A stretch of 26,052 nt of DNA from a virus, in the IMG/VR virus record IMGVR_UViG_3300027861_000178, positions 1 to 26,052 of that record; one strand, written 5' to 3'. How positions within the stretch are numbered: position 1 is the first letter of the stretch; each line of letters opens with the position of its first letter. The translations under genes were made by a program, and so were the position numbers. This document shows positions 6,006 to 25,399 of this stretch, one piece after another. The notes below the pieces were generated by a model that saw only the letters and a list, made by a program, of their open reading frames with translations, was not told the DNA's origin and searched no databases.

Positions 6006-9000
6006 TGAGCGATCAGCCAGTAAGATTTACACCACTCGGAAACCTTGACAAAGACTCTGAGTACAAACTTGTAGGCAAGGGTAATTATACTGATGCTCTT
6101 GATGTAATCAAGCAGGATGATGCTGGTCAGGTGTCAGGAACAATACAGCCTACACAGAGAAACAAACACGCTTTCTCGTTGGGTAGTGTTCAGGCACAAA
6201 ACAAGAAGTATCGTGTAACTGTAGATGGCGATGCTACAAAGAGTCATGCGTTAAGGTTTGTATCATCCGACAATCAAGTTACAATAGTAAATGGGAGTGG
6301 GAGTAACAATGAGGTTGAGTTTAATGGTATTGTTTCAGATTTTTTAAACTCTTGGAATACCCAGACTCAACAGTATGCTGCTTTTCAGATAACAACTTCT
6401 GGAAATATTATTGAAATAGAGTTAACGCAATATTCTTATTATAATTGGAGTTTATTCAGTGTAGGGCAAGATGAGGTTCAAGTAGAGTGTATTCAAGAAG
6501 CCATACCAACCAACCTTACTGGTAAGCTGAAAGACATTGGTTCTTACGATTTACTTGGTGATTTGTTTATATTCAGTACTACTCAAAGCGAAGAACCTTC
6601 AGAGTTAGAGGCTAAAATAATTAATGTTGGTCCACTTAACAATAACCCATCGCCTCCTCCAAACCTTATATTAACTGGACCTATAACCGAAATAACATTT
6701 GACTCTCCTCACGGACTTATACAAGGAGAGCAAATAAGAATACAAAACTCGCAAGCCGCTTGGTTAAACACAATTTTAATTGTGGATGAGGTCACTTCAT
6801 CTTTATCGATAAATGTTGTAACTAACACTTCTTGGGGGCAGGTTTATCCAGAGTTTTCAGTAGGTGATGAGGTTGTAATTATAAACCCAACAGGGTTAGG
6901 TGAGATTGGAGTTTCTCAAAAAAACAACCAATCAGAGCAGTGGTCATACATTAGGTTGCTTAGAAGTGTTGAGTTCAATTTTGTTCAGACAAAAGACATA
7001 AGGTGCGATGGGAGACAAAAGATATCAAGTAAACATCTTTATTTTACTGATTTCTATAATTCAATAAGATCTTTTAAGTATAAAGGGGTATTTCAAGAGG
7101 ACGGAGCGTTATCTTTTGTTAATAGTGAAAATATATACAGTTACGGAAATATAAACCTTGAAGTGCAGCTTTCGGATGTTTCTGGAGGAATTTACAATAC
7201 TCTTTCTTTATCTTCTGTAAATCAAACAGGAGGGCAACTTGTTGCTGGTAATTATTATTTTTTCTATAGGTTTTACATAGGTGGTCAATCTCAATTTTGG
7301 GGTGCTTTACCTAACCCTGTTTCAATATATCTTAAAGACTTTCCAGATGACCCAATAAGATTTATTGTTGGAGATCCATCAACAACAGTAACATCAAAAT
7401 CAATAAGTATTAGCCTTACTGGTGTTAATGTTAATCTTTTTGATGAGGTTGAATTTGCTGTAATAAGAGCCTTTGAAGATGGGTTTGATGAGCCTTTAAT
7501 ATTTACACCAAACAGATTGACTGCAACTGAAACTGTAAATGTTGACTATACTGGTTACGGAGAGGAGGTAATACCTGTAGATGTAGCAGAATTTTCTTTA
7601 GAATCACTTTCTGTTGCTGTACCAGACAAGGCGTATGATTTATCTATTATAGACGGCAGATTGGTTCTTGGGAACATAAAATACAAAGATATAGGTAATT
7701 TATCAGATTGGGCTGAAGCAATAACTCATTCATTAAAATACGAAGAAATAGGTATTAGCCCAATTAGAAGAAAGGATATCTATGAATCATACGTCAAGCC
7801 AGAGATAATAAACGAATACCCTTCTGTAACTTTAAACGAAATATATAGAGTTGGGGTTGAAGTTATTTTTTCAAACGGAGTAAAATCCCCTATCTATTGG
7901 GTGGATGACATAAAAATAGATTGCGAATCTACAAACACAGAAAATCCAAACAATGATAATAGAAGGATTTCTGGGTTGCCTAATTTTGAATTAACAGGGG
8001 ATGTTGATGTTTCAGACGGAAACAATAACCAAGTAACAAAAGTTCCCTACATAGAATTTTCTAACATAAATTTAGAGTATTTATTTGGTGGTACTCCATT
8101 AAAAAATCAAATATCAGATGTTAGATTTAGACTCGCTGAAATAAAAAACAAAAGAAGTGTTTTAGCATCTGGTTTTGTTGTTATAGGAGTGGATGGTAAT
8201 AGGATTTCTGAGGTTGTTCCAGATGCCTCTGGCTACACTCAAGACGGAAGCACTGGACCTGTTACATTTAGCATTAGTACTAATGATACTATTGCTCCAA
8301 TCCCCTCATTTGCTGGATGGTATGGATTTAATAACCCAAATAACCAATTCTACGCTGAGTGGGATACAACTGAAATAGGCTACCCATTTTCAGACTTTCC
8401 AAACACTAATCCCCCTGGTCTTTTAGCAAACAATTGGACTCCATATAGAAAATATGCCTTTTTCTGTTCTCCAGAATTAACAAATGGAGAATTAGATGAT
8501 TTTAACTTAACAGGTGCTGATAGATTAAATGTAATGTATCCTTTAAAGAGGGAAGGGGATTATGTTGTTGGGGATATATCGGATTGGTCTGTAGGTTCTC
8601 TATCTCCAAGAGAAAATATTTTTTTAGACTATGTTGCTAAAACAGGGTTCTCTAACCCTGCCGTAAGCACAAATCAATATGATATAGATTATTTTGAGAC
8701 TTTTACTCCATCTCAGGGGATATATACTACAAATATTGACCCAACATCTCCAGGTGAAGAGGTTTCTAATCATTACAATACATTTGTAACAACACCAGTA
8801 GGGGGGGCGCCTGGACCAGTTCTACATCTTCCTAAAATGATGGTTTTTAAAACTGACCAAGGAATATATCCTGCTGATCTTCAAAATATACCATCAGAGG
8901 TTGCAAAGGATTGTGGTATATACTACGCTCAATTATATAGGGATATACCTAATAAGTATGGAGATATAGGAGACACGACATATATGTCTCAATACTCAAG

Positions 9001-10621
9001 TCATTCAGTGCAATCATTATTAGCGAATAGTGTGGCTAAATGTTTTTTAGGTGATGCTTTTATATACAGGGTCATAAATAGATGGCAATACCCAAGCTCC
9101 AATGCAAGGGGGGCTATAGGGTTATCCAATACTTGTCAGTCATACATAAATACTGCATTGATATTCCCTGAACCCACTTCAATGTTTTTTGATCAAGATA
9201 CAATTAACAATTGGTTAGACTCACTTGAAGAGTATGAATGGAAATATAATCACGCTTATGATTATAGGTTCCCAATACAAGACTCCCTTGTTTACACCGA
9301 AGAGCTAATAGATTCTCTCAGTGACGCTCCAGCAAGAGTTATATTTAGCGAAAGAGATAATTACGCATTTACAGTAGACAGGATGAGGGATATTCCTGTT
9401 GCTAACTTTAAAGATTTAGACGGAACTTGGGGTCCTATATTTTCAGTAAACAACATAAACGGAGAGCTATTTACGCTTCAACCAAGAAAGTATCAGCTTC
9501 AATACTTCAACACAAGAGGAACGCTTCAGGGTTCTAATGATGGAATTGAAGTTTTAATTGGCGATGCGTCTGTTTTGGATAGGGATGGAAAATCACTATC
9601 ATCTTACGGGACTAACCACGAAGGCTCAGTAATAAAAGGGTCAAGCCCAGGCGGTAAGGATGTAATTTACTGGTTCAACCAAGAGAATGGATTGTTTATG
9701 CGATTTGGTGCAGATGGAACTGTTGTTCTTTCTGAACGTAATGGTATCCGTTCTTTTTCAGCAAACAATACAAAATGGACCGAAAACCAAAACGTAGCCG
9801 CATTAAACTACGGAATCAGAAGTGTTTGGGATGATAGGTTCAAAGAGGCTATTTGGACATTTATAGGGGTTAGAGCAAATAAAGGAGTATGGGGAACATT
9901 ACCCTCAAATCAACCATATTCAGAAGGAGATACGGTTACTGGAAATACATTTGATACATATTCATTTGATGGTATTCCTGACGTATATATATCTCTGTTA
10001 AACCATTTTCCTTTACCTCAAACAGAACCTGGGGTAGGAAGCGATTGGGAAACGCACTGGAAGAAGGCTGAAAATAACTCTGAATACTACACGGTATTTA
10101 CGCTTGCATTTAATGAACTATCAAACGGATTTAGCACGTTTTACTCTCACTTACCAAAGACATACCTAAAGTGGAAGAACAAGTTCCTAAGTTCTCACCC
10201 AACAGAAAGAAGTGAGATTTACGAACACAGAAAAGGCTATGACAAGTGGTACGAGTACGAAGGTGTATGGAAAGAGTCAGAGCCGTATCTTGAGGGCGTA
10301 GTTAATCCATTCCCAGATCAGTCTAAGAAGTTCGTAGCTATTCAAGCACTTACCGACAATGTTCCTGACAGAATAGAGTTAAAAACAAAAGACCACGAAT
10401 CATTCTTAGTCGCTACAGACTTTGACCCTGAAGATGATGCTTGGAGGACTCCTATTAAGAACGACATACTTACAAGCCAAACAAGCGACCCTAACGATGA
10501 CACAGTTTCATTAATTGGCTCGTACATGAGGGTTAAGTTTAAGTTCTTCAACGGTGCTTACAACAAGATGAACAACTTGGTAGTCAAGGTAAGACAAAGA
10601 CTTAGGAGAACTCAATCATAG
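6005..10621 (+). CDS. Tail stabilisation / muzzle-type barrel protein (P22 gp10-like)
   Basis: 1538 residues. The N-terminus (FTPLGNLDKDSEYKLV, then GNYTDALDV at 26-34) is the typical opening of the large tail-barrel proteins of crAss-like and other Bacteroidota podoviruses. The C-terminal third is blade-like and carries YWFNQENGLFMRFGADG, then IRSF, then the conserved-looking FNELSNGFSTFYSHLPKTYL (1369-1388). Residues about 219-300 hold an FCCH-like beta insertion (SPHGLIQGEQIRI). No signal peptide or membrane segment is seen. The protein probably forms the distal tail barrel below the ring proteins. The gene ends with TAG, the only TAG stop in the window. Base composition differs along the gene: the middle is clearly more AT-rich than both ends, as if the variable central part had a separate history. 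Confidence 0.7.
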   Translation: MSDQPVRFTPLGNLDKDSEYKLVGKGNYTDALDVIKQDDAGQVSGTIQPTQRNKHAFSLGSVQAQNKKYRVTVDGDATKSHALRFVSSDNQVTIVNGSGSNNEVEFNGIVSDFLNSWNTQTQQYAAFQITTSGNIIEIELTQYSYYNWSLFSVGQDEVQVECIQEAIPTNLTGKLKDIGSYDLLGDLFIFSTTQSEEPSELEAKIINVGPLNNNPSPPPNLILTGPITEITFDSPHGLIQGEQIRIQNSQAAWLNTILIVDEVTSSLSINVVTNTSWGQVYPEFSVGDEVVIINPTGLGEIGVSQKNNQSEQWSYIRLLRSVEFNFVQTKDIRCDGRQKISSKHLYFTDFYNSIRSFKYKGVFQEDGALSFVNSENIYSYGNINLEVQLSDVSGGIYNTLSLSSVNQTGGQLVAGNYYFFYRFYIGGQSQFWGALPNPVSIYLKDFPDDPIRFIVGDPSTTVTSKSISISLTGVNVNLFDEVEFAVIRAFEDGFDEPLIFTPNRLTATETVNVDYTGYGEEVIPVDVAEFSLESLSVAVPDKAYDLSIIDGRLVLGNIKYKDIGNLSDWAEAITHSLKYEEIGISPIRRKDIYESYVKPEIINEYPSVTLNEIYRVGVEVIFSNGVKSPIYWVDDIKIDCESTNTENPNNDNRRISGLPNFELTGDVDVSDGNNNQVTKVPYIEFSNINLEYLFGGTPLKNQISDVRFRLAEIKNKRSVLASGFVVIGVDGNRISEVVPDASGYTQDGSTGPVTFSISTNDTIAPIPSFAGWYGFNNPNNQFYAEWDTTEIGYPFSDFPNTNPPGLLANNWTPYRKYAFFCSPELTNGELDDFNLTGADRLNVMYPLKREGDYVVGDISDWSVGSLSPRENIFLDYVAKTGFSNPAVSTNQYDIDYFETFTPSQGIYTTNIDPTSPGEEVSNHYNTFVTTPVGGAPGPVLHLPKMMVFKTDQGIYPADLQNIPSEVAKDCGIYYAQLYRDIPNKYGDIGDTTYMSQYSSHSVQSLLANSVAKCFLGDAFIYRVINRWQYPSSNARGAIGLSNTCQSYINTALIFPEPTSMFFDQDTINNWLDSLEEYEWKYNHAYDYRFPIQDSLVYTEELIDSLSDAPARVIFSERDNYAFTVDRMRDIPVANFKDLDGTWGPIFSVNNINGELFTLQPRKYQLQYFNTRGTLQGSNDGIEVLIGDASVLDRDGKSLSSYGTNHEGSVIKGSSPGGKDVIYWFNQENGLFMRFGADGTVVLSERNGIRSFSANNTKWTENQNVAALNYGIRSVWDDRFKEAIWTFIGVRANKGVWGTLPSNQPYSEGDTVTGNTFDTYSFDGIPDVYISLLNHFPLPQTEPGVGSDWETHWKKAENNSEYYTVFTLAFNELSNGFSTFYSHLPKTYLKWKNKFLSSHPTERSEIYEHRKGYDKWYEYEGVWKESEPYLEGVVNPFPDQSKKFVAIQALTDNVPDRIELKTKDHESFLVATDFDPEDDAWRTPIKNDILTSQTSDPNDDTVSLIGSYMRVKFKFFNGAYNKMNNLVVKVRQRLRRTQS

Positions 10622-10640
10622 AGTGTGCGTTGTTTTTTCG

Positions 10641-10648
10641 TATCTTTG
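10641..10648 (+). promoter_or_regulatory. Promoter box, form CGTATCTTTG, before the internal-protein genes
   Basis: TATCTTTG in the same CGTATCTTTG context as the box at 3440-3449, lying in the 56-base gap after the tail-barrel gene. It ends 29 bases before the ATG at 10678. As at 3442, a TGTG occurs 18 bases upstream of the box. It would start a transcript for the three putative ejection proteins. Confidence 0.6.
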
Positions 10649-10671
10649 AAGTTAGTCTATAACTAAACTTC
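10648..10671 (+). other. Hairpin in the short 5' leader of the internal-protein transcript
   Basis: GAAGTTAGT (10648-10656) can pair with ACTAAACTTC (10662-10671) apart from one bulged A, giving a 9-bp stem with a 5-base loop. It begins at the last base of the promoter box, so it would form the 5' end of the mRNA if transcription starts there, and it ends 6 bases before the ATG. It is too AT-rich and lacks a T-tract, so it is not a terminator. A role in mRNA stability or start-site access is a guess. Confidence 0.4.
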
Positions 10672-10677
10672 ATAAGC

Positions 10678-11391
10678 ATGGCGTGGATAGGACCTGTGAT
10701 AGGGGCATTAAGCGGAATTGTAACAGGAGCAATTCAAAAAAGAAAGGCGGCAGAAGCAGCACAAGCACTTCCTGACCCTATGAGTTTCTCTCCTACACCA
10801 CAAATGGTTAAGGCTGAAGAAATGTTTGGTAAACGAGCAGAAATGGGTTTAGACCCAGCAGAACTGCGAGTGGCAAGACAAGGGATTACAAGAAGCAGAG
10901 GGGCAGCAGGAAGAATGATGGAGAACATGGGTCTTTCAAGAATATCTCAAGGTATGTCCAATATTTACGGAATGGATGCGGAGATGAATCTTGCTGCTTT
11001 GAACGCTAAGGCAAAGCAAGATGCTATGAATAGATATTTAGGTGTAGCACAAGGGTTCCAAAACATACAAGACCAAGAGGTTACTTCGTTTAATCAAATG
11101 CTAAACCAACAAAGAATGGCGCTGGGGGCTGCTGGGGCTTCTGGAGGCAAAAATATACTAAGCGGTATAGCTACAGGTGTTCAAGGTTTAAACACTAATC
11201 AACTTGCAGAGGCTTACGCAAACTCAGGAGACACGTATAACTACAATTTATACGGAGGGACTGGTGGGAGTAGCTTTGGAGGTGGAATGTTTGGGAGTTC
11301 GGGAGGTGGACTTGGATTTGGAGGAGCGTATTTAGATTCAGGATTTACAGGTGTCGATACCTCTCGCTTCGGTAGATTTGGTCCTAAGTAA
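10678..11391 (+). CDS. Small membrane-associated internal virion / ejection-type protein
   Basis: 237 residues. Residues 3-20 are hydrophobic (WIGPVIGALSGIVTGAI) and followed by KRK, a plausible membrane-inserting N-terminus. A helical, Met/Gln-rich central part follows (MDAEMNLAALNAKAKQDAM, then TSFNQMLNQQRMALG). The C-terminal 50 or so residues are very rich in Gly, Ser and Phe (GGMFGSSGGGLGFGGAY) and look flexible. The layout of short hydrophobic N-terminus, Gln-rich coil and Gly-rich end resembles the small ejection proteins of podoviruses (T7 gp14, P22 gp7). It is the first of three genes under one promoter and precedes two large proteins. A pilot or membrane-pore role is inferred; no sequence signature proves it. 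Confidence 0.5.
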   Translation: MAWIGPVIGALSGIVTGAIQKRKAAEAAQALPDPMSFSPTPQMVKAEEMFGKRAEMGLDPAELRVARQGITRSRGAAGRMMENMGLSRISQGMSNIYGMDAEMNLAALNAKAKQDAMNRYLGVAQGFQNIQDQEVTSFNQMLNQQRMALGAAGASGGKNILSGIATGVQGLNTNQLAEAYANSGDTYNYNLYGGTGGSSFGGGMFGSSGGGLGFGGAYLDSGFTGVDTSRFGRFGPK

Positions 11392-11409
11392 TAATATTAA
11401 AAAAACAAC

Positions 11410-13305
11410 ATGGCAAACGGAGGAGCTTTCGGCAACCCACTAACTACAGGTATAGCACTGAACTTCGAGGTCGATATGACCCCGTATCGTCAGATGATGA
11501 AGGACAACCTTGATTTTGCCAAAAATCAGGCTGCGAATATAAAGGCAAAACAAAAAGAGTTTAAGGATATACTAAAGAACATAACCTACGATGACTCTAA
11601 GATTCTAAAAAGACGTAGAGATGGCGCAAGGGTTAAGTACGCAGAGCTTATTAGCGATGCAATAAAGTTGCAGAAAGAGGGTGACTTTGGAGGTGTTCAG
11701 ATGGCGATTGCAGAATTTGATAGCGGTATGCGTAATTTAGTTGATGAGAGAACTCAATTTGACGCATACGAAAAATTAGCTAAAGATGGAAAGCATTTCG
11801 TTAATATGGATTACATTAATGCAATACATGGAGAGAACGCAGGAGCCACTTCTGACGCTAATATACTCTTAAATCATGGAGATGAAATTATTTACGACTC
11901 AAAAAGTGGTACTTTTAATTCACACGCCATTAAAAGAGCAGACCCGTTAGCTTTTGTCAACAAGGTAATTTCGGGTATGCCTATGAAAGCACTTAAAGGC
12001 TCTAAGCCTGTATATATACCAGAAACAAGAGAGTATAAATACGACCTATCAAAAGTCGAAGACCCTGATGCGCTTTATGCGGAAATGGCAGCTACGTGGT
12101 TAGGCGGAGGGGAAAGTCATATTGAAACTATGAGGAGAGACATGAATCTAACTCCAGATGACCTTGACGGAACTGGAGCGATTGAGAATGCCACTGAGTA
12201 TATGAGAATGTTGACCGAAAACAAAATACTCGGTGAAAGATATTCAAGCCCTCCCCGACCTCCATCAACCAAACATACTTACGGGGTTACCGATGATAAT
12301 ATTGGAGATGTAAGTTTCTCAGGAAAACCATCATCAGCAGTGTCTACAGAGAGTTCAACTCCAGAGCAGATAGAGCAAGCGAGAGTTGACAAGATAACAG
12401 GTGAAGTGCAAAAATATGTAACTGATGCTATAGCCGCAGACCCAGATAATGTGGAAGATAAATTAGCTATGGAGTCATATTTAGAGCCTTTTGGATTAAA
12501 CATAAAGGTATCTGGAAGAGCTTCGGCTATAGGTAAAGAAGAAGTAGCAATACAAACAGAATCTGGTAATAATTTGGCATTCTTAGACCCTACCTCTAAC
12601 ACGTTTGTTCAAGACCTAACTAAAATAATTTTAGAAAACGGTACTGAAAGCTATCTTGAAACACAGGTCGGAACTCCCGAAACAACAGCCGAAGAGTTCC
12701 TTACTCCTGAGTCTGATTCATTCTTTGCCAATCTTGCTGGTGGCAAGACACCAATTACAGACTGGGCAATCCCTGCTGGGGCAACAGTTGTTTTAACTGG
12801 CGATCAGGGGGCTGTTGAGGTAAAACTAAAGAATGATATGACCTTTGATAAAGGTAAGTTCCAAAAAGCAGCTAAATACAAGGATAAATCTGGGAATACG
12901 GATACGTACTACGATATAATGTTCCCAATTGACCAAAGAGATAAGGAAACGTATTTCACCAATTTGTTTAATGATTCTGACGTTCTTACTGAATTTAAGA
13001 TAAAAAGCCCAGACCAACTTCCAAAGTCAATGTATGTGAAGCAAGATAACGGTTTATTTAAAAGTCTTTTATCAGTCTTACAGAACAAGACTAACATAGG
13101 AAAGATGACTGAAGGTTCTCTAAAGAAAGCTATGGACAAGTTTATGAAGCCTATGTCTACGTCAGGAACGGCATCAAGCGGTGGAGCAGCAAGAAGAACA
13201 GAGATAAAGGAATCTGAAATAGCAGCAGCAGCCGCTGCTGCTGGTCGTTCTGAAGCAGAATACAGACAACTTCTAATAGATAATGGAATTAAAATAGTAC
13301 CATAA
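11410..13305 (+). CDS. Internal virion (cargo/ejection) protein, 631 aa
   Basis: No family is recognised with certainty. The N-terminal 110 residues are helical and very basic (NQAANIKAKQKEFKDIL, then KILKRRRDGARVKY). A mixed globular middle follows, with YIPETREYKYDLSKVEDPDA and a Ser/Thr/Pro-rich linker near 290-320. Another mixed alpha/beta stretch leads to an Ala-rich C-terminus (SEIAAAAAAAGRSEAEYRQ). There is no signal peptide or membrane helix. The gene sits 18 bases after the small membrane-type protein and 1 base before the giant gene, so the three are surely co-transcribed and probably act together. By position it matches the second internal protein of T7-like ejection sets or a crassvirus cargo protein. 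Confidence 0.5.
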   Translation: MANGGAFGNPLTTGIALNFEVDMTPYRQMMKDNLDFAKNQAANIKAKQKEFKDILKNITYDDSKILKRRRDGARVKYAELISDAIKLQKEGDFGGVQMAIAEFDSGMRNLVDERTQFDAYEKLAKDGKHFVNMDYINAIHGENAGATSDANILLNHGDEIIYDSKSGTFNSHAIKRADPLAFVNKVISGMPMKALKGSKPVYIPETREYKYDLSKVEDPDALYAEMAATWLGGGESHIETMRRDMNLTPDDLDGTGAIENATEYMRMLTENKILGERYSSPPRPPSTKHTYGVTDDNIGDVSFSGKPSSAVSTESSTPEQIEQARVDKITGEVQKYVTDAIAADPDNVEDKLAMESYLEPFGLNIKVSGRASAIGKEEVAIQTESGNNLAFLDPTSNTFVQDLTKIILENGTESYLETQVGTPETTAEEFLTPESDSFFANLAGGKTPITDWAIPAGATVVLTGDQGAVEVKLKNDMTFDKGKFQKAAKYKDKSGNTDTYYDIMFPIDQRDKETYFTNLFNDSDVLTEFKIKSPDQLPKSMYVKQDNGLFKSLLSVLQNKTNIGKMTEGSLKKAMDKFMKPMSTSGTASSGGAARRTEIKESEIAAAAAAAGRSEAEYRQLLIDNGIKIVP

Positions 13306-13306
13306 T

Positions 13307-16300
13307 ATGGGTTTTCAAAGCACAGTAAGTTACGATGAGTTTGGTATTGCTATTAAATCAAAAGACGAAGAGGTAGCTGTTGATGAGTTTGGCATTCCGA
13401 TAAAAAAAAAAGAGTCAACCGAACCGACTCAGCCAGTTCAGACTCAGCAAGTTCAGGAACAAGAAGTTCAACAATCTCCAACTCAGGACGCTCCTTTACT
13501 CGGTCTTGGAGCTGTTTCGGAACAAGCTACAGCATCTCCTTCAGTTGGTCAAGGAGTTCTTAGGGATGTAGACCAAACACAGACTACGGATGGTGAATTA
13601 GACGCAGTTAAGAAGTCAATAGACCGACCTCTTATGGCGGCTCAAGATAGAGCTAAACAAGAATCTCAATCAGGTTCGTCACTAAACCTTTCAAGAACAG
13701 AAAAGTTCGTTCCGTATGACATATCTGAGCCTGAAATTACAATAGATGAAGAAGCTGAAGATTATATTCCTGACGAATTTGGGGCTTACTCTACAAGCTA
13801 CGAAGAAGTTGTAAAGGACAAATCCCTACTCGCTCAGTCTGAGGTTAAAAAACAAGCCCAAAAAAGAGCTTTAAAACACGAGATAGCAAGAGATCAACTT
13901 TTAAGTGTTGACGTAAAAGATAAATTGTTTGATAAGGATTACACAGACAGTCTTTTAGATACGTATGCCCCCAAGGACATAAAAACAACCACTACTGGTT
14001 CTTATCAACCTGGTAGGATTACTACGGCTGATGAGTTTGTTCGTGACCAAGAAAAGGTAGACGAGTATCAGGTCGCTCTTAATGCAGCAAAAAAGCAAGT
14101 AGTGTCAGAAAAGCTTTCCAACATAATGGATAGCGGTGACACAGCATTCCAATCCGCAGAGTTAGACATTGACAAGGCAATGAACTCATGGCTTGAAACA
14201 ACCAAGGATCTTGAGACTAAAGAGGCTAGGAAAGACCTTACATTTATTGAGGACTTAATTCTTGATGACGAATACATTAAAAAAGGTGCAGATATAAGCA
14301 CTGTACACGACATACTCCAACCTGGGTATGTTGGTGGCGCACAAGGTATTTTTGATTCCGAGATAGATAAATTTGTAGAGGAAAACTTAGAAGACCTTAA
14401 CATAGAAAGTGACGAGGAGAAAAAGATGATGAAGGTTCATCTTAAAGAAGTTTACAAGAGCAAGAAAAAATTAGACAAGGCTGCTGGACAGGTTGCTAAA
14501 AAACTTGGTTTTGATGCAGATGATGTGACTAAGGATTTTGATAAGATTGTAAAAAAAATCACAGGTTACGAATCGGAGATTAAGTCGTTATACACTCCGT
14601 ATGAAGCAAAAGCCAAACAGGTTCAAAAAGACATGGTGCTTGAGTTTGAGAAATCACAGGACCGTATTTTTAATAGAATATCTCAGTCTGAAGAGTACAG
14701 TAAATTACAAAGTGAACTTCAGGGAAAGGTGAACTCTGGTGAAATGACAGAGGCAGAGGCAAACTCAGCATTAAACCAAAGGATAAACATTATGATTTCT
14801 GAAAGCCCAGAGGCAACTCAGCTTCAGAAAAAATATCAGGGCGTTCTAAGTAGTTATGAGTCTCAGTTTGAAAAAGAGACAAGTAGAATATTTAGCAATA
14901 TACAGGCTGAAATAGAACAGGCAAAAGACCTATCAAGCAAGGATGAAGAGTACAGGAAGATGCTTTCTGAAAAGGTGTCTGAAATGTATGATGCTGAGAA
15001 GGCTGAAATAGAGTCTGATTGGGAAAACCTATACTTTGGTGGTGGTCAGATGAGAGGATTAAAAACTGGTCTTGGTACTATTGCTTCAATGATGTCTGGA
15101 GGTTCTGAAATGTTCTTTGGAGAGACTGAGTTCAGTAAGAGTCTTACATCGGTAAATAATCAAATTCAATCAGACAATCCTTTAATAGACCCAGGTGAGT
15201 TTAGCTGGACGGAAAGTCCATTTGACGCAGATTGGTGGGCTACAAGAGTCATGCCGTCTGCCCCAATTACATTCTCACTATTGGTTCCAGGTATGGGTGT
15301 GGGTGCTGGAACAGCAGCACTTGCAACAAGGATTGGTCTTACTGGTCTTTCTCGTGCGCTTATAGCTGGTACTGTGTCTGGTACAGGAATGAGGGCAATG
15401 GAAAGCTTTACGGAGTCATCTTTACAGTACTACGACCTTATAGAGAGAGGTGAGTCTGTAGAATACGCCTCAGTAGAGGCTTCTAAAAACTATAGGGACC
15501 AAATGGGGGCTGTAGTTTTTGATGTAGCCGAAATGACGTTTATATTCCTCCCAGTTGCAAGTAGACTTGCCGCAGTAGCTAAAGTTGCTGTACAGGTTCC
15601 ATTAAACTCAGTAGAAGAGCTTTACCAAGAAGAAATAACTGCCGAGGAAATTGCCCGAAAAAGGTACTTAGAGGGTGGGCTTACTATGGAGGAAATTGAG
15701 ACAGGGGTTACGGAGTACGAAAAAGTATTTTCTGGTGGAAAGTTCAGCGATATGTACAACTTCGCCAAAACAAAGCAGGGTCAGGAGGTAATGGCTATTG
15801 GCGGAATATATGGTGGTGCATTTGGCGTTACTTCATTTGGAGTTCCAGGCGTAATTGATGGTGACTGGCAACGAGCAAACTCACAAAGAAAGCTTAACAA
15901 CTTCCTTAACGAGGAGATTGTAAAGTATTCAAGCACTGAAATTGTTAGAAACGCAGAAGGTAAACCACTTGAGTTCGGTAGGGGTGGAGTTGTCCGTGGT
16001 CCTGCCGAGACAATGCAGGAAGCTAAAAACAGAAGAATCTGGCAGCTTAAGGCTACTCTTGACGAGATGCAGATGAAGGGTCTTATCAATGAAGATGACA
16101 CTAAACTTGGTAAAAAGCAGATTGACTTTACCTTTGGTGTTGCTGACCAGATGCCTGTAAATCTTCCTCTCGTTACCCGTGGTCAGTTACTACAGAAACT
16201 AACGGAAATAGAGGAGCTTGAACAGGGACTTGAGGGTATGACTAACGAGACTCTTATTGGCAATCAAAAGAAGAAGATAGCAAAGCTAAAGAAGGAGTCT

Positions 16301-19300
16301 GAAGAAATAATTGGCGGAACTGCAAAGGGCTACTTTATAAATAATGTGAGCGTTACACTTGAGCAGTTTGTAAAGATAGCTACAAATCCAAAGTTCGCAG
16401 AGGATGTTGTTAATGGCAATGTTGATATTGTCATAATGAACGACCAAGAAACTCAGGAATCATTTGCAAATGCTGTTAAAGAGTACAAGACTGAGCCAAG
16501 AGTATTTGAAACCCCTACAGATGAAAAGTACGCTGTAGTAAACGAAGGCAAGGGAGAGGGAGACAGGGTTCTTACTAAAACAGAGTACGATGAGTATGTT
16601 GCTCCTGCCCAAGAAGAAAAAACAAAAGAGGATAAGTTAGCTAAAGATAAAGATAGAAACGAACGTATAGAGAAGGCTCTTGCGATACTTGAGCCTATAG
16701 CATCTTCGAGAGAGGAGCTTACGGTAGACCAACTGACAGAGGTGTCTGAAATCATTGGCGAAGAACTCGCTGGAGAGTTGATATCAGATCAAATCAGCAA
16801 GGCTCCTGACGCTGTAGACCTATATAACCTATTAGACGATAATAAAGTAAAGATAGATGATACGCAAACTACCGAACAAGAAGCTGTGGTTGAAGAGGCT
16901 GCACCTGCTGAGGAGGTTGTGGTTGAAGAGGCTGCGCCTGTTGAGGAAAAAGAAAGAGGGTTCTTCGGTAAAACACTTGACAAGGTATTCAAAAAAGAAA
17001 AGATTGATGAGGATGTTCAGCTAACTGAGGAACAAAAAGAGCAGGGTATTCAAGAGGTTTATGATGAACAGGTAAAATATTTAGAAAGCAGAATTGAGAA
17101 GGCTCAAAAAGAAGGAAATAGTGTTCTTGATAATATGTACAAAATAGACCTTGAGGGACTTAAGTCTGAATCTCCAAGGCAGTATTTAGAAAGAGATTTA
17201 GAGACACGGAAAGGAATGCCTAGCTACTACTCGGAACAAGCAAGTAAAAAGAATGCTGGAATTTACAACAAACAATTAGTTCAAGAGTCAGTTGATAGAA
17301 TCTACCAAATAGAGAAACTGTTAGGCATAACAGCAACAGAGCAAGAGGTAAAAGCAAGGCAGGAGATTATAGACTCCACGCCAACAAGAGCTGAATTAGA
17401 GGCTCAAATACTATCTGAATCTCAAACATTAGAAATAAAAGACGGTAAAATAGAAATAGTCAAGTCAGTTGAACTTGGCAAAGCACCTACAATTAAAACA
17501 AAGGATGCTCCTAAAATAGAACCCCTCACCAAAGAAGACGCAAAGTCGGAAGAAAAAGTAAAGGAGTTCGTTGAAGAAAACTTGTCTGACGAGAAGAAGA
17601 ATGAAGAGGCAGATAATGAAATAGAGTCTAAGTCTGAAGAAGAACTCAAAGAAGACGTTCCTAAAGTATTAGAATCAATCTCTGAATCAGAAAGAGAGAG
17701 ACTTGACAGAGAGGCTAAATTCAAAAAAAAGTCTACTGTAGATTATGTTATTGACTACCTAAAAGGTAAGTTAAAGAATGTCAGACAGTCAATCAAGAAT
17801 ATCCTTGAGAAGATTAAATCGAATTATAGAAAGGTAATTATAGGTACTACTATAATAGTTGATTTAGCTACAATGGGAACTGGCGTTAAGCTTGCAGAAC
17901 CAAAGGTCAAAGATGCATTTAAGGAATCTATAGAGTTCGTGTCTCCAATAGTTAAAGAAGTTTCCAAAAGTAGTATATTGTCTTTTGCTGAATCAAATAA
18001 AGAATCGTTTTCATTAATCAACGAAACTGTTCAGGCAAGTAGTTTATCTGAATCAATAAAAGGAAATTTTGCAAATGTTGCATCTCAGTCTGGAGCAGTT
18101 AAGGGTGTAAAACAAGAAGTGTCACTTACAAAGCAAGGGATTACAAAAGAAACAGACGTTATTGACGATAAGTTTTTAGACACACAAACATTCAATGAAA
18201 ATATAAGCGTTTCAAAAGAAGCTACAACTAAATTGCCTCAAGTTAGATATAGAGAGCAATTTCCAGCATCAAGAGGAACAGAATATGTTATTGGTGGGAA
18301 TACCAATGAAAGAAAAGGTAAAGACATTGAGGGCATTGAGAGAGTATCACACTTTATGTTGGATGGGAATTTTAAAGAAGGTGTTGATTATACCGATAAA
18401 GATTATGAATATTTTAAGTCAGGAGATCAATACAGATATACAGGAAACAGGGGTATTCACAGAACTGGCATTGAAACAGATGGATATGTTCCGTATATAT
18501 TAAATAGGGCTGGTGATCGTGCTATTGTTACATACAAAAGATACTCTGAAATATCTAAAAGTAAAGACGTAAACCAAGTCCTTAAAGATGGTAATATTCT
18601 AACGCCATTACGTCAGTTTAAATTTGGAGACATAGATTGGGATAGAAAGCCAATAAATAAGGAGGTTAAAGATGGTGGAGATAGGGTTTATAAATCTGCT
18701 GTTGAGTTACTTCTAAAAGACAATGTTCCTAACCCATACAGAGAAGGGAGATTAAAAGGAGATGGAGGTGGTAAAAAGGACTTACACCCAAGAGGAACGT
18801 ACATATTTTATACGCCAGCTTCTGGAGAAGATGCTTACGGAAGATATAATGGAGGTTCTTTTGTTTTCATTTTTGATTACAAAGGCGAGACATTTGTAAG
18901 AGATTTTGCTGGCAGTATTACTGATGTAAAGGCAGAGGGAAGAGATATAGCTAAAAAGTATAGAATAAGTGAAAATGACATAACAATTGGTTTTCACGAT
19001 GCAGGTAGTGTAAGTACAAAATTAAAAGCCACAAACGGAAAGTTAACTGATAGTGATATTAAAAAAGTAAACAATAAGGGAGTTGTAACTAATTTCTTAG
19101 GCAAGCCAACAGAAAACAAAATACCAAGAGATGAGCCAGGCGATGCTCCAATTGGTCTTATGGCACTTCCATTACTGTTCGGTGGTGTAAAAAGAAAAAG
19201 AAAACCCTTAGAGGACACTGATGCTGACAAAGTAGTAACAGAATGGATGGGAGATGTGCAGAAGATTTACGATGCACAGAAGACTAAGAATAAGGAAGAA

Positions 19301-22300
19301 GCAAGAAATCAAGCCGCTGTTAATTTAGCGTTAAGCGGTAAACTGGATGAACTCGCTCCTGACCAAGTAAGTAAAATTCTTGACGCTATAAAGAAAGAGA
19401 CTGAAGTTATGGGTAAGAAGTGGAGTGTTTCCACATTGTCTGAACTTGAGGGTCTTACACTTAAAGAACAGTTCAAGCAAGGTTTTGAAGAGTATGTTGC
19501 CGCAATGAAGCAGAAAGAGTCTGATAAGATTCAAAAAGCAAAAGAAACTGCTCAAGGCAAGATAGATGCAGTTAAAGAAAGAACTGCAAAAGCCGTTGAG
19601 AAAATAAAGGCTAAAAAAGAAGCTGAAAAAATAGAGTACAAAGACAAGATTGAAAAGCTAAAGAAAGAAAGTAAAGCCGACAAAGAAGCAAGAGAACTTT
19701 TTGCAGCAATTGTAAATGACATCGCTAAAGATGCAGGTCTTTCTCAAATATCAAGAAATAAAGCCTCTGAACTTCTAAAATCTTCAAGAGATGTAAATGC
19801 AGAGAACATTGAAAGGTTACTTGAAAAAGCTGTTCGTGTAATAGAATACGAATATAAAAGAAACATTGTAAAAGAGTCAGACAAGAAAATAAAGGACTTT
19901 AATAAAAATATTAAAAAGAACAAGTTTGGTACTTTAACTCAAGCAGCTAAAGAACTTGCTGGGATAACCACTGAAGATATACCTATCGGATTACTCCCAA
20001 GGTTTGTTGATGTAATAGATGGTGTTTCAAAGAAATCTCCTTCAGCTAAAGACCTTGAGGAGCTTGCTAAATTTATGTCTGAGTTTAAGAATGAACTTGA
20101 CCAGCAAATAACTGACATACAGTCTTTTGCAGATGTGCTTAATGATTTCAAGACTCAAGAAGAAACTGAAAAAATAGATGATTATTTAAAAGAAAACGGT
20201 TTTTCAGAATCACAAATAGAGTTCTTCAAGAACAACAGAAAAGCTATAAACGCTGCATACAAAAGTTTTTACACTAAAGAAGGGAAAGACCTAACCGCAC
20301 AAGAAAAAGCACAAAAGATATCTGAGCAGATGCTTGAAGCCAAAAAGGTTTTTAGGGAGATGGAAGCTGACGGTGACGCAAAGGTTGATATGAACAAGTT
20401 CAAAGGCAAAGTTCAACAAGAAGTGAATATTGCTGAGTTCTTTAATAACATAAAAGCGTCCGATATAAACTACCTTTCAAGAACAGAAGCAAACAAACTA
20501 CCTGTTGTTTTTGAAAATCTTAACCGTGGCATGGTTACAAATGCAACTTTTAAGATTATGAATAGAATTAAAGGCGGAAGGATTCTTGATTCTTTTGTGA
20601 AGTTAGACCCTAAATCTCCAATCAAAAGAGTTAAGACAAAAGATGAGCTTTTTGAGTCTTTTGTATCTAATGCTGGGGAAATTGCAAAATTAGATAGGGT
20701 TTTTGATCCTGCCACATTAAAGAACTCAAGAGATCTTGCAAAAGATATTGAGAAAAAGGTTCTTGACTACGCTGATGAGGTTATAAAAGGGCTAAAAGGA
20801 AAACCATTGTATGAGCAAATAAGCAAGGTAATAAGACCACTTGTAAATGCAAACACACGTACAGCAAAATTCCACGAAAAGGCTAACGAGTTGTTTAATA
20901 AAATGGATGGGAGTCCTTTACATAACACAACTCTTATGTCTGTATATTTTAGGTCAAGAGAGTTTGACTTGAACCCAGACAATGCCAAGATAAGAAATCC
21001 TCTTGACTACATAAATAAGACATTAGAAAGCTCAAGTTTATCAGAAAAGAAAAGAGCTGTACTTAGCGGAATAAAAAACGAATACTTTAGAAATGGAAAG
21101 CCATTAACAAAAAATATGCTTTCAGTTATAGAGAAGAGTAAGGGTGGTCCGTTGATTGACTTTATGGATAAGGTTATGGCTGAATCAAAAGGCGATGTGA
21201 GATTTATGTCTGAAGTGATTGAGTCAAGCCCTGTTGATTTTTTTATGGGATACCAGCCAAGGTCAACAATTAAAGGAAAGAAAAGTATTGAGGATTTATT
21301 ATCTGATGTTTCCAACAATGTAGGTAGACCATCTTTAAAAACGAGTGCCGTAAAATCAAGGGAAACAGGAGCTAACGCTCTTAGCTTTGATGCAATGGAT
21401 GATTTTATGCGAACAGCAGCATCCATCGATTTACAAAGAAGTATTGCTCCTGCTTTGGCAGAATTAAATGCATTTATATCTGAAGCAAGTAGAAGCGGAA
21501 ACGCTGACGCTAAAATATTTGCAGACACTTTAAAAAGGGTAGTTGAATCCTACGTGAAAAATACCTTATCAAGAGACTATAAGCAAAAGGGTCTTTTCGG
21601 AAACATTTATGATTCAATGGGCAGAAAGCTAAAGAAAAACACTTTAGCTGGCATATCTAAGGCTACTGTTGAGTCACTTATTCAATTAGGTAAGATACAT
21701 ATTGATGAAGATGCAAGTAATGCGTTTTATAAGAACGCATCTATGAAAAGAGATGTGTCTAATCAACAAGTTTTAGAAGCTCTAAACTCTATTCACGTAG
21801 CAAGGGCAGGAGTACTTTCTTCTGAAATGTCAAGAAAAAGGTCATACATAACAGACGCTGTAAGGAGAGGTGATTCAAATAAAGTTGAAGAATTAATATA
21901 TTCTGCGTCAAAAACCATTCCTGGTAAAGTTGTATCAGGCGTGGATGATTTTATGGGAGATTTTAATACGGCACTTATAAAGTTCCCTGACCTTATTGGG
22001 ACTGTTCAGTCTGCAATAGGGGGAGCCGCTATTAGGTTTAAGGAAATTACAGGTAAAGAACTTGATTTCGACAAGCTTGTAAAAGACCCTGAATACAGGG
22101 CAAAATATAAAGATGAACTTGAAGCTTCAATAGCATATGGTGATCAGTTAGCAACAAGAATGGGTGGACCTGGCTCTATGGAACAAAAATCTCTTCAAGA
22201 TATAAAGGGTGGCAAGATTTGGGATGCGAATAGGTTTGTTAGGTCATTTTCCACAAATGAGAATGAGCAAATTCTAAGTGCAGTTACTACTCTTGGCGTA

Positions 22301-23368
22301 CCTACGTTGTCAGAAACAATTGGCAGAGATAAAGGAAGGCAGCGTGGAGCTGAATTTGAAAACAAGAGAAAAGCAGCAAGAGGACTTGCATCTTCTCTTT
22401 TTGGTCTTGGAGCTTACACAAGCTTTAGAATGGCACTTGGAACTTTAATTCTTGGTATGTTCGGTGCTTTATTGAATGGTGATGATTGGGATGAAGAATT
22501 TGATAATTGGGATTGGGATGTATTTAAAGCAAGGGTTCTTGGGGACTCTGTTTGGACTGCTTTATTTGGGAAGTTTGGAGTTATAGAGTCTTTAGTTGCG
22601 CAGTCACTTATTGCTTATGGAGTAAGACAAGCATATAAAGAAAGGGGCAAAGAAGAGCTTGGAGAGAAGATTGCTGATGGTATGTTTTACAGTACGGTAA
22701 GCCAAGACGATAAAGCAACTAAGGAATGGAAAATGTTAGGTCCAGAAGGAAAGCTTTTAGGTAGTATTTTGGAAACTGTATATGTGGTTGCAGATGCTTA
22801 TGAAGAAGAAGATTTTGACTTGCTTTCAAGCCCAAGCTTTAAGAATAACATTTTTACAATAGCAAAAGGGGTTTCTAATTTAGGGGCGGCTCAAGACGTA
22901 GGAACTGGGGTAAGAAAAAGGTGGTACGGAAGAGATGAAAATAGAAAGGTAAGGGAGTCATTTGGTAAAAACGGAGATTCCAAAATAGTAAACGAAGTAG
23001 AAAAAGAAGTTTTAAGGCTCTACAAAGAAACAAGAGAAAGGTCTGTTATGCCTTCAATGATAAAGGATAAACCAAGAAAAATAACGAAAAAGGGAGTAAG
23101 CGTTGATGTTTTTATTCATGGATTTTCGGTTAAAGAACTTCAAAGGTTAAAGGGAGACTTTATTAGGCGTGAATCTGAAAAACTAATTAATACAAGAGAT
23201 TATAAAAACGTAAGTGATTCTAAGAAAATAAAATTACTCAAGAGTATTTACGGTAATTGGAGTAGGTCTGAGTCCATTAACAGCGTTTCAAAAGGCAAAT
23301 ACAAAAGTATTGATGATTTCTACAAGCACAATGACAACATACTCAAGTTTGAAAGATCGTTAAGATAA
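13307..23368 (+). CDS. Giant (3353 aa) internal virion / cargo protein
   Basis: A single intact frame of 3353 residues, roughly 370 kDa. In order: a disordered N-terminus (1-150) with DEFG motifs at 10-13, 26-29 and 156-159. Charged coiled-coil helices follow (about 180-620), then three hydrophobic stretches (about 650-700, 736-765, 828-850) and acidic low-complexity sequence (about 1150-1480). A membrane-like segment (VIIGTTIIVDLATMGTGVKLA, 1510-1530) precedes a mixed alpha/beta globular module (about 1640-1935) and a short hydrophobic patch followed by KRKRK (about 1950-1966). After that come a Lys-rich coiled coil (about 2060-2140), a helical region with DFFMGYQPRST, two more hydrophobic stretches (3027-3056, 3082-3107), and a charged helical end (VKELQRLKGDFIRR, then YKNVSDSKKIKLL). 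The end resembles the C-termini of large phage polyvalent proteins (LPD38-type). Membrane insertion during DNA entry is the likely role. No polymerase DxDGD or lytic transglycosylase signature was seen. Confidence 0.6.
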   Translation: MGFQSTVSYDEFGIAIKSKDEEVAVDEFGIPIKKKESTEPTQPVQTQQVQEQEVQQSPTQDAPLLGLGAVSEQATASPSVGQGVLRDVDQTQTTDGELDAVKKSIDRPLMAAQDRAKQESQSGSSLNLSRTEKFVPYDISEPEITIDEEAEDYIPDEFGAYSTSYEEVVKDKSLLAQSEVKKQAQKRALKHEIARDQLLSVDVKDKLFDKDYTDSLLDTYAPKDIKTTTTGSYQPGRITTADEFVRDQEKVDEYQVALNAAKKQVVSEKLSNIMDSGDTAFQSAELDIDKAMNSWLETTKDLETKEARKDLTFIEDLILDDEYIKKGADISTVHDILQPGYVGGAQGIFDSEIDKFVEENLEDLNIESDEEKKMMKVHLKEVYKSKKKLDKAAGQVAKKLGFDADDVTKDFDKIVKKITGYESEIKSLYTPYEAKAKQVQKDMVLEFEKSQDRIFNRISQSEEYSKLQSELQGKVNSGEMTEAEANSALNQRINIMISESPEATQLQKKYQGVLSSYESQFEKETSRIFSNIQAEIEQAKDLSSKDEEYRKMLSEKVSEMYDAEKAEIESDWENLYFGGGQMRGLKTGLGTIASMMSGGSEMFFGETEFSKSLTSVNNQIQSDNPLIDPGEFSWTESPFDADWWATRVMPSAPITFSLLVPGMGVGAGTAALATRIGLTGLSRALIAGTVSGTGMRAMESFTESSLQYYDLIERGESVEYASVEASKNYRDQMGAVVFDVAEMTFIFLPVASRLAAVAKVAVQVPLNSVEELYQEEITAEEIARKRYLEGGLTMEEIETGVTEYEKVFSGGKFSDMYNFAKTKQGQEVMAIGGIYGGAFGVTSFGVPGVIDGDWQRANSQRKLNNFLNEEIVKYSSTEIVRNAEGKPLEFGRGGVVRGPAETMQEAKNRRIWQLKATLDEMQMKGLINEDDTKLGKKQIDFTFGVADQMPVNLPLVTRGQLLQKLTEIEELEQGLEGMTNETLIGNQKKKIAKLKKESEEIIGGTAKGYFINNVSVTLEQFVKIATNPKFAEDVVNGNVDIVIMNDQETQESFANAVKEYKTEPRVFETPTDEKYAVVNEGKGEGDRVLTKTEYDEYVAPAQEEKTKEDKLAKDKDRNERIEKALAILEPIASSREELTVDQLTEVSEIIGEELAGELISDQISKAPDAVDLYNLLDDNKVKIDDTQTTEQEAVVEEAAPAEEVVVEEAAPVEEKERGFFGKTLDKVFKKEKIDEDVQLTEEQKEQGIQEVYDEQVKYLESRIEKAQKEGNSVLDNMYKIDLEGLKSESPRQYLERDLETRKGMPSYYSEQASKKNAGIYNKQLVQESVDRIYQIEKLLGITATEQEVKARQEIIDSTPTRAELEAQILSESQTLEIKDGKIEIVKSVELGKAPTIKTKDAPKIEPLTKEDAKSEEKVKEFVEENLSDEKKNEEADNEIESKSEEELKEDVPKVLESISESERERLDREAKFKKKSTVDYVIDYLKGKLKNVRQSIKNILEKIKSNYRKVIIGTTIIVDLATMGTGVKLAEPKVKDAFKESIEFVSPIVKEVSKSSILSFAESNKESFSLINETVQASSLSESIKGNFANVASQSGAVKGVKQEVSLTKQGITKETDVIDDKFLDTQTFNENISVSKEATTKLPQVRYREQFPASRGTEYVIGGNTNERKGKDIEGIERVSHFMLDGNFKEGVDYTDKDYEYFKSGDQYRYTGNRGIHRTGIETDGYVPYILNRAGDRAIVTYKRYSEISKSKDVNQVLKDGNILTPLRQFKFGDIDWDRKPINKEVKDGGDRVYKSAVELLLKDNVPNPYREGRLKGDGGGKKDLHPRGTYIFYTPASGEDAYGRYNGGSFVFIFDYKGETFVRDFAGSITDVKAEGRDIAKKYRISENDITIGFHDAGSVSTKLKATNGKLTDSDIKKVNNKGVVTNFLGKPTENKIPRDEPGDAPIGLMALPLLFGGVKRKRKPLEDTDADKVVTEWMGDVQKIYDAQKTKNKEEARNQAAVNLALSGKLDELAPDQVSKILDAIKKETEVMGKKWSVSTLSELEGLTLKEQFKQGFEEYVAAMKQKESDKIQKAKETAQGKIDAVKERTAKAVEKIKAKKEAEKIEYKDKIEKLKKESKADKEARELFAAIVNDIAKDAGLSQISRNKASELLKSSRDVNAENIERLLEKAVRVIEYEYKRNIVKESDKKIKDFNKNIKKNKFGTLTQAAKELAGITTEDIPIGLLPRFVDVIDGVSKKSPSAKDLEELAKFMSEFKNELDQQITDIQSFADVLNDFKTQEETEKIDDYLKENGFSESQIEFFKNNRKAINAAYKSFYTKEGKDLTAQEKAQKISEQMLEAKKVFREMEADGDAKVDMNKFKGKVQQEVNIAEFFNNIKASDINYLSRTEANKLPVVFENLNRGMVTNATFKIMNRIKGGRILDSFVKLDPKSPIKRVKTKDELFESFVSNAGEIAKLDRVFDPATLKNSRDLAKDIEKKVLDYADEVIKGLKGKPLYEQISKVIRPLVNANTRTAKFHEKANELFNKMDGSPLHNTTLMSVYFRSREFDLNPDNAKIRNPLDYINKTLESSSLSEKKRAVLSGIKNEYFRNGKPLTKNMLSVIEKSKGGPLIDFMDKVMAESKGDVRFMSEVIESSPVDFFMGYQPRSTIKGKKSIEDLLSDVSNNVGRPSLKTSAVKSRETGANALSFDAMDDFMRTAASIDLQRSIAPALAELNAFISEASRSGNADAKIFADTLKRVVESYVKNTLSRDYKQKGLFGNIYDSMGRKLKKNTLAGISKATVESLIQLGKIHIDEDASNAFYKNASMKRDVSNQQVLEALNSIHVARAGVLSSEMSRKRSYITDAVRRGDSNKVEELIYSASKTIPGKVVSGVDDFMGDFNTALIKFPDLIGTVQSAIGGAAIRFKEITGKELDFDKLVKDPEYRAKYKDELEASIAYGDQLATRMGGPGSMEQKSLQDIKGGKIWDANRFVRSFSTNENEQILSAVTTLGVPTLSETIGRDKGRQRGAEFENKRKAARGLASSLFGLGAYTSFRMALGTLILGMFGALLNGDDWDEEFDNWDWDVFKARVLGDSVWTALFGKFGVIESLVAQSLIAYGVRQAYKERGKEELGEKIADGMFYSTVSQDDKATKEWKMLGPEGKLLGSILETVYVVADAYEEEDFDLLSSPSFKNNIFTIAKGVSNLGAAQDVGTGVRKRWYGRDENRKVRESFGKNGDSKIVNEVEKEVLRLYKETRERSVMPSMIKDKPRKITKKGVSVDVFIHGFSVKELQRLKGDFIRRESEKLINTRDYKNVSDSKKIKLLKSIYGNWSRSESINSVSKGKYKSIDDFYKHNDNILKFERSLR
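16885..16947 (+). repeat. Tandem 33-bp repeat in the giant gene
   Basis: A 30-base unit at 16885-16914 recurs at 16918-16947 with two substitutions, a period of 33 bases. It encodes VVEEAAPAEEV followed by VVEEAAPVEEK in an acidic, Pro/Ala-rich, surely disordered linker. The copies are in frame, so gain or loss of a unit would only change linker length. Confidence 0.85.
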
Positions 23369-24688: not shown

Positions 24689-25399
24689 ATGAGTTGTAAT
24701 TCTTGTTCAAATATAACACTACCTGGAGTTGTGGGACCTGCTGGTGCGCCTGGTGCTGCTGGTGCTGCTGGTGCGCCTGGTGCTGCTGGTGCTGCTGGTG
24801 CTAACGGTACTAACGGATCTAACGGAACCAATGGAACGTCAATAATAGAAATTGACACCACTTTGGGTGCTGGTATAACTTCTCAGACAAGCCCAACAAC
24901 TCCTCAAAAATCATTTAATATCCCTGCAAATACATGGCAGAATGACGGGGATATGGTTGAGATGGAAATTATGGCGGTAGGTGAGGAGTTTGTTAACCTA
25001 GTAGCTCTGCCTTCACACAAAATTTACCTAACTATTGGAGAAGCACCTGGGACTGTTTACCCGATTGACATTAGCACTTTAGGAACGGCTTGGTTTGGTG
25101 CTGGATACACATTTTCAAATTCAAAGTTTGAGCCTTTTTTCCATTTAAAGACACAGTTATCTATGTCTTCATCAGGTACAATTACTCCAATTACAGATAC
25201 TTACATGACTGAAGGGCTTTACACTGATGAATCAACAAATATTTTTGGAGACGTAAAGCTTTTTGATAAGCAAAGAGGGGCTAACCTAACCAGTGTTCCA
25301 GTTGGGTCTGATATTCCGATTAAAGTGTATTTGGTAAGCGCAGACGGAAGTGTAAATATGAAGCTCTTCTACTTTAAACTAACATCATACAAGGCGTAA
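24689..25399 (+). CDS. Collagen-like fibre protein
   Basis: 236 residues. It opens with MSCNSC (a CxxC at 3-6), then has 13 Gly-X-Y triplets at residues 13-51 (GPA GAP GAA GAA, ending in GTN/GSN triplets), the pattern of a collagen triple helix. Residues 52-236 form a beta-rich globular part (MVEMEIMAVGEEFVNLV, then PIKVYLVSADGSVNMKLFYF) likely to be the trimeric head domain. Phage collagen-like proteins are typically trimeric fibres of tail or head. It starts 3 bases after the Cys-rich gene and ends 1 base before the next fibre gene. The two CxxC cysteines could staple the three chains or bind metal. Confidence 0.65.
   Translation: MSCNSCSNITLPGVVGPAGAPGAAGAAGAPGAAGAAGANGTNGSNGTNGTSIIEIDTTLGAGITSQTSPTTPQKSFNIPANTWQNDGDMVEMEIMAVGEEFVNLVALPSHKIYLTIGEAPGTVYPIDISTLGTAWFGAGYTFSNSKFEPFFHLKTQLSMSSSGTITPITDTYMTEGLYTDESTNIFGDVKLFDKQRGANLTSVPVGSDIPIKVYLVSADGSVNMKLFYFKLTSYKA
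24743..24796 (+). repeat. Perfect 27-bp tandem repeat in the collagen-like tract
   Basis: Two identical 27-base units (24743-24769 and 24770-24796) encode GAPGAAGAA twice. The unit itself is built of 9-base Gly-X-Y blocks. Length change by slippage would stay in frame and alter fibre length. Confidence 0.9.

What the first reader, a model, noticed from the sequence alone, without database searches (positions are those of the whole stretch)
18230..19110. Compact alpha/beta module inside the giant protein, possibly enzymatic
Residues about 1640-1935 look unlike the coiled, low-complexity sequence around them. They contain aromatic and glycine-rich strands (HPRGTYIFYTPASGEDAYGR, GGSFVFIFDY) and a GFHDAGS motif (1895-1901), just after a membrane-like segment at 1510-1530. 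No other cell-wall enzyme is visible among the ejection genes, so this is the best candidate for an activity delivered with the genome. The enzyme idea is a guess: H1827, H1897 and D1898 are only suggestive.
Basis: inference. Interest (0 to 1): 0.6.

Follow-up and report, generated by a model that had tools for sequence, protein, structure and literature searches.

The report
Bacterial exported-protein domain in phage protein
A giant, patchwork protein of a crAss-like bacteriophage, probably injected into the host, carries a compact removable domain whose second half belongs to an unnamed family of exported Bacteroidota proteins; two of the three residues guessed to be catalytic are not conserved.

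Summary
Residues 1640-1935 of the 3,353-aa protein (ORF 13307-23368) contain the protein's most beta-prone and nearly its most aromatic stretches. The region behaves as a cassette: a relative (L021; capsid protein 91% identical) aligns on both sides, up to about residue 1577 and again from 1936, with only about 25 residues in place of about 360.

Pfam, PHROGs, NCBIfam, PADLOC, PDB, phage and plasmid searches find nothing. A search of Bacteroidota genomes and one profile iteration found seven stand-alone chromosomal proteins, all with an N-terminal export or anchor segment and no known family. A profile of those seven alone matches window residues 1845-1924 at 33.8 bits (best of 2,000 shuffles 9.4); the N-terminal half is only suggestive.

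The enzyme reading fails in its specifics: H1827 and H1897 are unconserved; only D1898 (D-A-G) is invariant. The module keeps 11 of 37 residues invariant among the bacterial relatives and lacks their conserved His residues. The fold is unresolved (AlphaFold pLDDT 30 and 49).

Best reading: a captured, diverged exported-protein domain in a variable slot of a mosaic, polyvalent-type cargo protein, probably shown to the periplasm during genome delivery.

The parts
13307..23368 (+). giant mosaic cargo/ejection-type protein (3,353 aa) that contains the module
   Evidence: block homology to three relatives' giants
17831..17875 (+). hydrophobic segment 1 (about residues 1509-1523), basic flank on its N-terminal side
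   Evidence: conserved in L021
18038..19111 (+). indel cassette, about residues 1578-1935, absent from L021; low third-position GC (0.211; z -3.9 given the amino acids for residues 1575-1935)
18314..18661 (+). N-terminal half of the domain (about residues 1670-1785: IEGIERVSHFMLD, LTPLRQFKFGDIDW); homology suggestive only
   Evidence: 8.3 bits, 1 of 2,000 shuffles reaches it; alignment
18821..19078 (+). C-terminal core (about residues 1839-1924), homologous to exported Bacteroidota proteins; order strand-strand-helix-strand
   Evidence: secondary structure in low-confidence models
18851..18856 (+). G1849-G1850, invariant in all homologues
18989..19009 (+). GFHDAGS 1895-1901: D1898 and G1900 invariant, H1897 not conserved
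18785..18787 (+). H1827 of HPRGTY: not conserved (Trp in 6 of 7)
19145..19189 (+). hydrophobic segment 2 (residues 1947-1961, APIGLMALPLLFGGV) followed by KRKRK; conserved in L021

Best explanation
The module is a divergent, phage-captured member of an unnamed family of exported (often lipoprotein-like) Bacteroidota proteins. It sits as an optional cassette in a variable slot of a mosaic giant cargo protein of a crAss-like phage. Shown: it is discrete; it is present/absent between relatives; its C-terminal core is homologous to the bacterial family; the giant is a block mosaic; the relatives' family carries N-terminal export or anchor segments. Inferred: the giant is packaged and ejected with the DNA; the slot lies in a loop between two hydrophobic segments that is exposed to the periplasm during delivery; there the module acts as an envelope-facing accessory domain, most likely binding or mimicking the host ligand or partner of the parent lipoprotein rather than cutting the wall, since it has lost most residues the bacterial proteins hold invariant.
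For: Indel with conserved flanks: 66-69% identity over window about 1402-1577, and 68% identity over the first 176 residues from 1936, but only about 25 aa between them in L021. Homology: single-sequence hit E 5.4e-9 in one Bacteroidia genome; a profile found five more stand-alone homologues in Chitinophagales, E 1e-59 to 1e-93; a seven-sequence profile that excludes the window scores its core 33.8 bits against at most 9.4 for 2,000 shuffles. Export: all seven have a strong N-terminal hydrophobic segment, and L166, L197 and L200 a lipobox-like Cys; where the neighbourhood can be read they lie among ordinary chromosomal genes, not prophages. Loss of invariants: 11 of 37 kept; the conserved His of VH.YT falls in a gap, the His of IHGS is A1868, and the C-terminal GAG[FY]GY motif is missing. 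Topology: basic residues on the outer sides of both hydrophobic segments in window and L021. Giant: same gene position after the crAss muzzle (PF25731); a relative's giant carries LPD38 at E 4e-4, a phage-only polyvalent domain (PMC5512222).
Against: No virion proteomics exists for this phage, so packaging is inferred from gene order. The two hydrophobic segments are short and weak (19-aa Kyte-Doolittle 1.41 and 0.99), so the loop topology may be wrong. Homology of the N-terminal half is only suggestive (p about 0.001). Low third-position GC is the extreme of a gradient along the gene and does not prove acquisition; L021 could have lost the module instead. The function of the bacterial family is unknown, so binding versus catalysis is not decided by data.
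Confidence: 0.5

Rival explanations
1. The module is an active enzyme injected with the genome, using the invariant acids (D1686, D1898, with R1769 and S1870) on an envelope or cytoplasmic substrate; the lost His residues were not catalytic.
For: D1686, R1769, S1870 and D1898 are kept in all eight sequences despite 17-24% identity to the window. Polyvalent proteins commonly carry enzymes (PMC5512222); a relative's giant carries an HEMIH zincin-like motif after the same kind of acidic linker.
Confidence: 0.25
2. The family is a remote branch of the NAGPA/YigE phosphodiester-glycosidase fold: strand, helix, strand ending in D-[AG]-G.
For: The core has the same order of elements, and D-A-G falls in register with LDGG when profiles are aligned; in one genome the stand-alone homologue lies two genes from a protein with NAGPA-profile similarity.
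Against: Profile-profile probability 0.1%; score 10.1 is below column-shuffled controls (up to 14.9), while two NAGPA branches recognise each other at 94%.
Confidence: 0.08
3. The module is ancestral filler or a structural spacer of the giant that L021 lost, with no function of its own.
For: Direction of the indel is not proven; the giants differ greatly in length (3,096-4,418 aa).
Against: Clear homology of the core to stand-alone exported proteins and conserved D/G/S positions argue for a folded domain; no homologue in three other giants.
Confidence: 0.15

Closest known systems
Polyvalent proteins of phages and conjugative elements (Iyer et al. 2017, PMC5512222)
   Same: Giant multidomain proteins thought to be injected with the DNA, strongly mosaic, with interchangeable domains; a relative's giant has a sub-threshold LPD38 match, a domain described only from phage polyvalent proteins.
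   Different: No recognised polyvalent domain in the window's own giant; the domain here matches none of the Pfam or NCBIfam entries searched and has stand-alone relatives that are exported proteins in ordinary chromosomal settings.
crAss-like cargo proteins (PhicrAss001 gp45-gp50, PMC10172136)
   Same: Encoded after the muzzle gene; large; hydrophobic segments; expected to pass through the tail before the DNA.
   Different: No sequence match to known phage records for either half of the giant; crass cargo proteins are predicted to be mostly helical, whereas this module is beta-rich.
NAGPA/YigE phosphodiester glycosidases (PF09992)
   Same: Similar order of secondary-structure elements and a D-x-G motif after a strand.
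   Different: No statistical support by profile comparison.

Membership tests
Unnamed exported Bacteroidota family (L165, L166, L197-L201) | homologous core with GG, S and D-A-G | tested here: met
   33.8 bits against at most 9.4 in shuffles with a profile that excludes the window; G1849, G1850, S1870, D1898, G1900 invariant
Unnamed exported Bacteroidota family (L165, L166, L197-L201) | colinear N-terminal half ([HQ]F.LD ... FRQW) | tested here: inconclusive
   8.3 bits, reached by 1 of 2,000 shuffles; F1683, D1686, R1769, Q1770 retained
Unnamed exported Bacteroidota family (L165, L166, L197-L201) | conserved VH.YT and IHGS histidines and C-terminal GAG[FY]GY | tested here: not met
Peptidoglycan hydrolase / peptidase | recognisable family profile or conserved catalytic His | tested here: not met
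   no Pfam, NCBIfam, PHROGs or PDB match; H1827 and H1897 not conserved
ADP-ribosyltransferase | ART family profile or fold | tested here: inconclusive
   no sequence or profile match; fold could not be compared
NAGPA (PF09992) | profile similarity above controls | tested here: not met
Phage polyvalent protein (the giant as a whole) | two or more functionally unrelated domains, mosaic architecture, virion gene context | tested here: inconclusive
   mosaicism and context met; recognised domains only in relatives and below cut-off (LPD38 E 4e-4, GNAT E 0.002)
Ejected virion cargo protein | presence in the virion and delivery into the host | not testable with these tools
   needs virion mass spectrometry

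The most novel reading that the evidence does not exclude
Crass-like phages may capture host exported or lipoprotein domains into a swappable periplasmic loop of a giant ejection protein, so that during genome delivery the phage presents a decoy or mimic of a host envelope protein, for instance to engage its partner or to block a competing or defensive process.
Probability: 0.2. Interest if true: 0.7.

Novelty: new variant of a known kind. Interest (0 to 1): 0.42.

Why it matters
It ties a previously unannotated exported-protein family of Bacteroidota to the likely ejection machinery of crAss-like phages. It also shows that, in relatives with 91-94% identical capsid proteins, the muzzle-to-giant region is rearranged in blocks. 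If the module faces the periplasm, it gives a concrete handle on how these phages deal with the Bacteroidota envelope, which is poorly understood.

Tried and rejected
Direct searches with the module in viral contigs, genome contigs, phage records, plasmids, PDB, Pfam, PHROGs, NCBIfam and PADLOC gave nothing. A hand-made DNA motif (DFAG ... FHDAG) in genome contigs returned only chance proteins, but gave Bacteroidota genome handles that made the six-frame searches possible. AlphaFold2 on single sequences failed (mean pLDDT 29.7 for the module, 49.0 for the core), so no Foldseek search was run on them. Homologues found by the genome search were not handed to the structure predictor because its stated rule does not list that source. 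NAGPA was tested and rejected at profile level. Weak tblastn hits of a stand-alone homologue to Staphylococcus jumbo-phage giant proteins (E about 0.06) were not supported by the family profile. Four weak hits in the Flavobacteriaceae search (E 0.005-0.03) and most of those in the Bacteroidia search were judged chance.

Full report
Observation. ORF 13307-23368 encodes 3,353 aa. Sliding-window statistics show that residues 1640-1935 hold the most beta-prone segment of the protein and nearly its most aromatic. Hydrophobic segments flank the region at 1509-1527 and 1947-1961.

Context. The window is a 26-kb virus record. Its 1,538-aa protein matches the Crassvirus muzzle family (PF25731, E 1.6e-29), and the nearest isolate by tblastn is Cellulophaga phage phi14:2 (28.5% over 190 aa). 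Eleven viral contigs carry capsid proteins 88-98% identical to the window's. Three of them include the equivalent giant gene (3,096, 3,673 and 4,418 aa). The giants are block mosaics: window and L022 share about 163-1134 at 54-57%; window and L021 share about 1402-1577 and 1936-2965; L021 and L023 share about 700 residues at 56%. Meanwhile capsid proteins are 91-94% identical, muzzles only 33-43% over their main aligned blocks, and the two genes between muzzle and giant have no or little counterpart.

Cassette. L021 runs from the first hydrophobic segment to PIGLMALPLLFGG with an 87-residue loop; the window has 423 residues there. The missing stretch is about residues 1578-1935. Its third-position GC is 0.211, lower than expected from the amino acids (z -3.9), but this is the bottom of a gradient along the gene and only weakly indicates recent acquisition.

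Homologues. No family, structure, phage or plasmid database recognises the module. Six-frame searches of Bacteroidia genomes with the C-terminal half found two stand-alone proteins (E 5.4e-9 and 5.9e-5). A three-sequence profile found five more among 399 Chitinophagales genomes at E 1e-59 to 1e-93; they are rare elsewhere (no new strong hit in 396 genomes of the phylum). They are about 324-374 aa ORFs with an N-terminal export or anchor segment, three with lipobox-like Cys, and lie among ordinary chromosomal genes where the neighbourhood is visible. No Pfam or NCBIfam family covers them. A profile of the seven, excluding the window, matches residues 1845-1924 at 33.8 bits against at most 9.4 in 2,000 shuffles; the N-terminal half scores 8.3 bits with 1 of 2,000 shuffles equal or better.

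Residues. Of 37 positions invariant in the seven proteins the window keeps 11, including F1683, D1686, T1696, R1769, G1849, G1850, S1870, D1898 and G1900. H1827 aligns with Trp and H1897 with Ser. The His of VH.YT falls in a gap and the His of IHGS is A1868.

Mechanism. By gene position the giant is expected to be a cargo/ejection protein; in PhicrAss001 cargo proteins are packaged in capsid and tail and are expected to leave ahead of the DNA (PMC10172136). A relative's giant has a sub-threshold match to LPD38, which Iyer et al. [quoted passage not shown] Relatives also show HEMIH, HEYGH and GHNR motifs and a weak GNAT match, read here by eye as polyvalent-type enzymes. Basic flanks outside both hydrophobic segments would, by the positive-inside rule, put the loop in the periplasm, in keeping with the exported nature of the bacterial homologues; this step is inference from weak segments. 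Binding or mimicry of an envelope ligand is preferred over catalysis because most family invariants are lost, but this is a judgement, not a result.

Limits. The fold is unknown; single-sequence AlphaFold2 gave only a low-confidence strand-strand-helix-strand order. Resemblance to the NAGPA fold was tested and is not above controls. Viral scans use exact peptide patterns and may miss distant copies.

Noticed in passing
window 6005-13305 and counterparts in L010/L021, L011/L022, L004/L023: In relatives whose capsid proteins are 91-94% identical, the muzzle drops to 33-43% and the two following genes have no or weak counterpart: the region from the muzzle to the giant is hypervariable.
   Followed up: partly
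window 13307-13420; L023 1057-1200: The giant's N-terminus has a tandem motif (YDEFGIAIKSK / VDEFGIPIKKK) shared with L023; weak matches (E 0.5) in structural proteins of Cellulophaga phages phi38:1, phi40:1 and Calle.
   Followed up: partly
L022 residues about 1577 and 3124-3300; L023 residues 1308 and 2943; L021 residues 1090-1200: Relatives' giants carry polyvalent-type signatures: HEMIH and HEYGH zincin-like motifs, ParB-like GHNR, LPD38 (E 4e-4) and GNAT (E 0.002).
   Followed up: partly
window 24689-25399: A protein with a collagen-like repeat (PF01391, E 3.8e-6, just under cut-off) lies downstream of the giant, possibly a fibre.
   Followed up: no
L205 3728-6388: One stand-alone homologue lies in a run of lipoprotein-like genes, two genes from a protein with NAGPA/YigE-profile similarity.
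   Followed up: partly
window residues 1947-1965 (19145-19201): APIGLMALPLLFGGVKRKRK looks like a C-terminal sorting or anchor signal of exported bacterial proteins (Pro, hydrophobic run, basic cluster) but sits inside the protein; conserved in L021. Resemblance from memory only.
   Followed up: no
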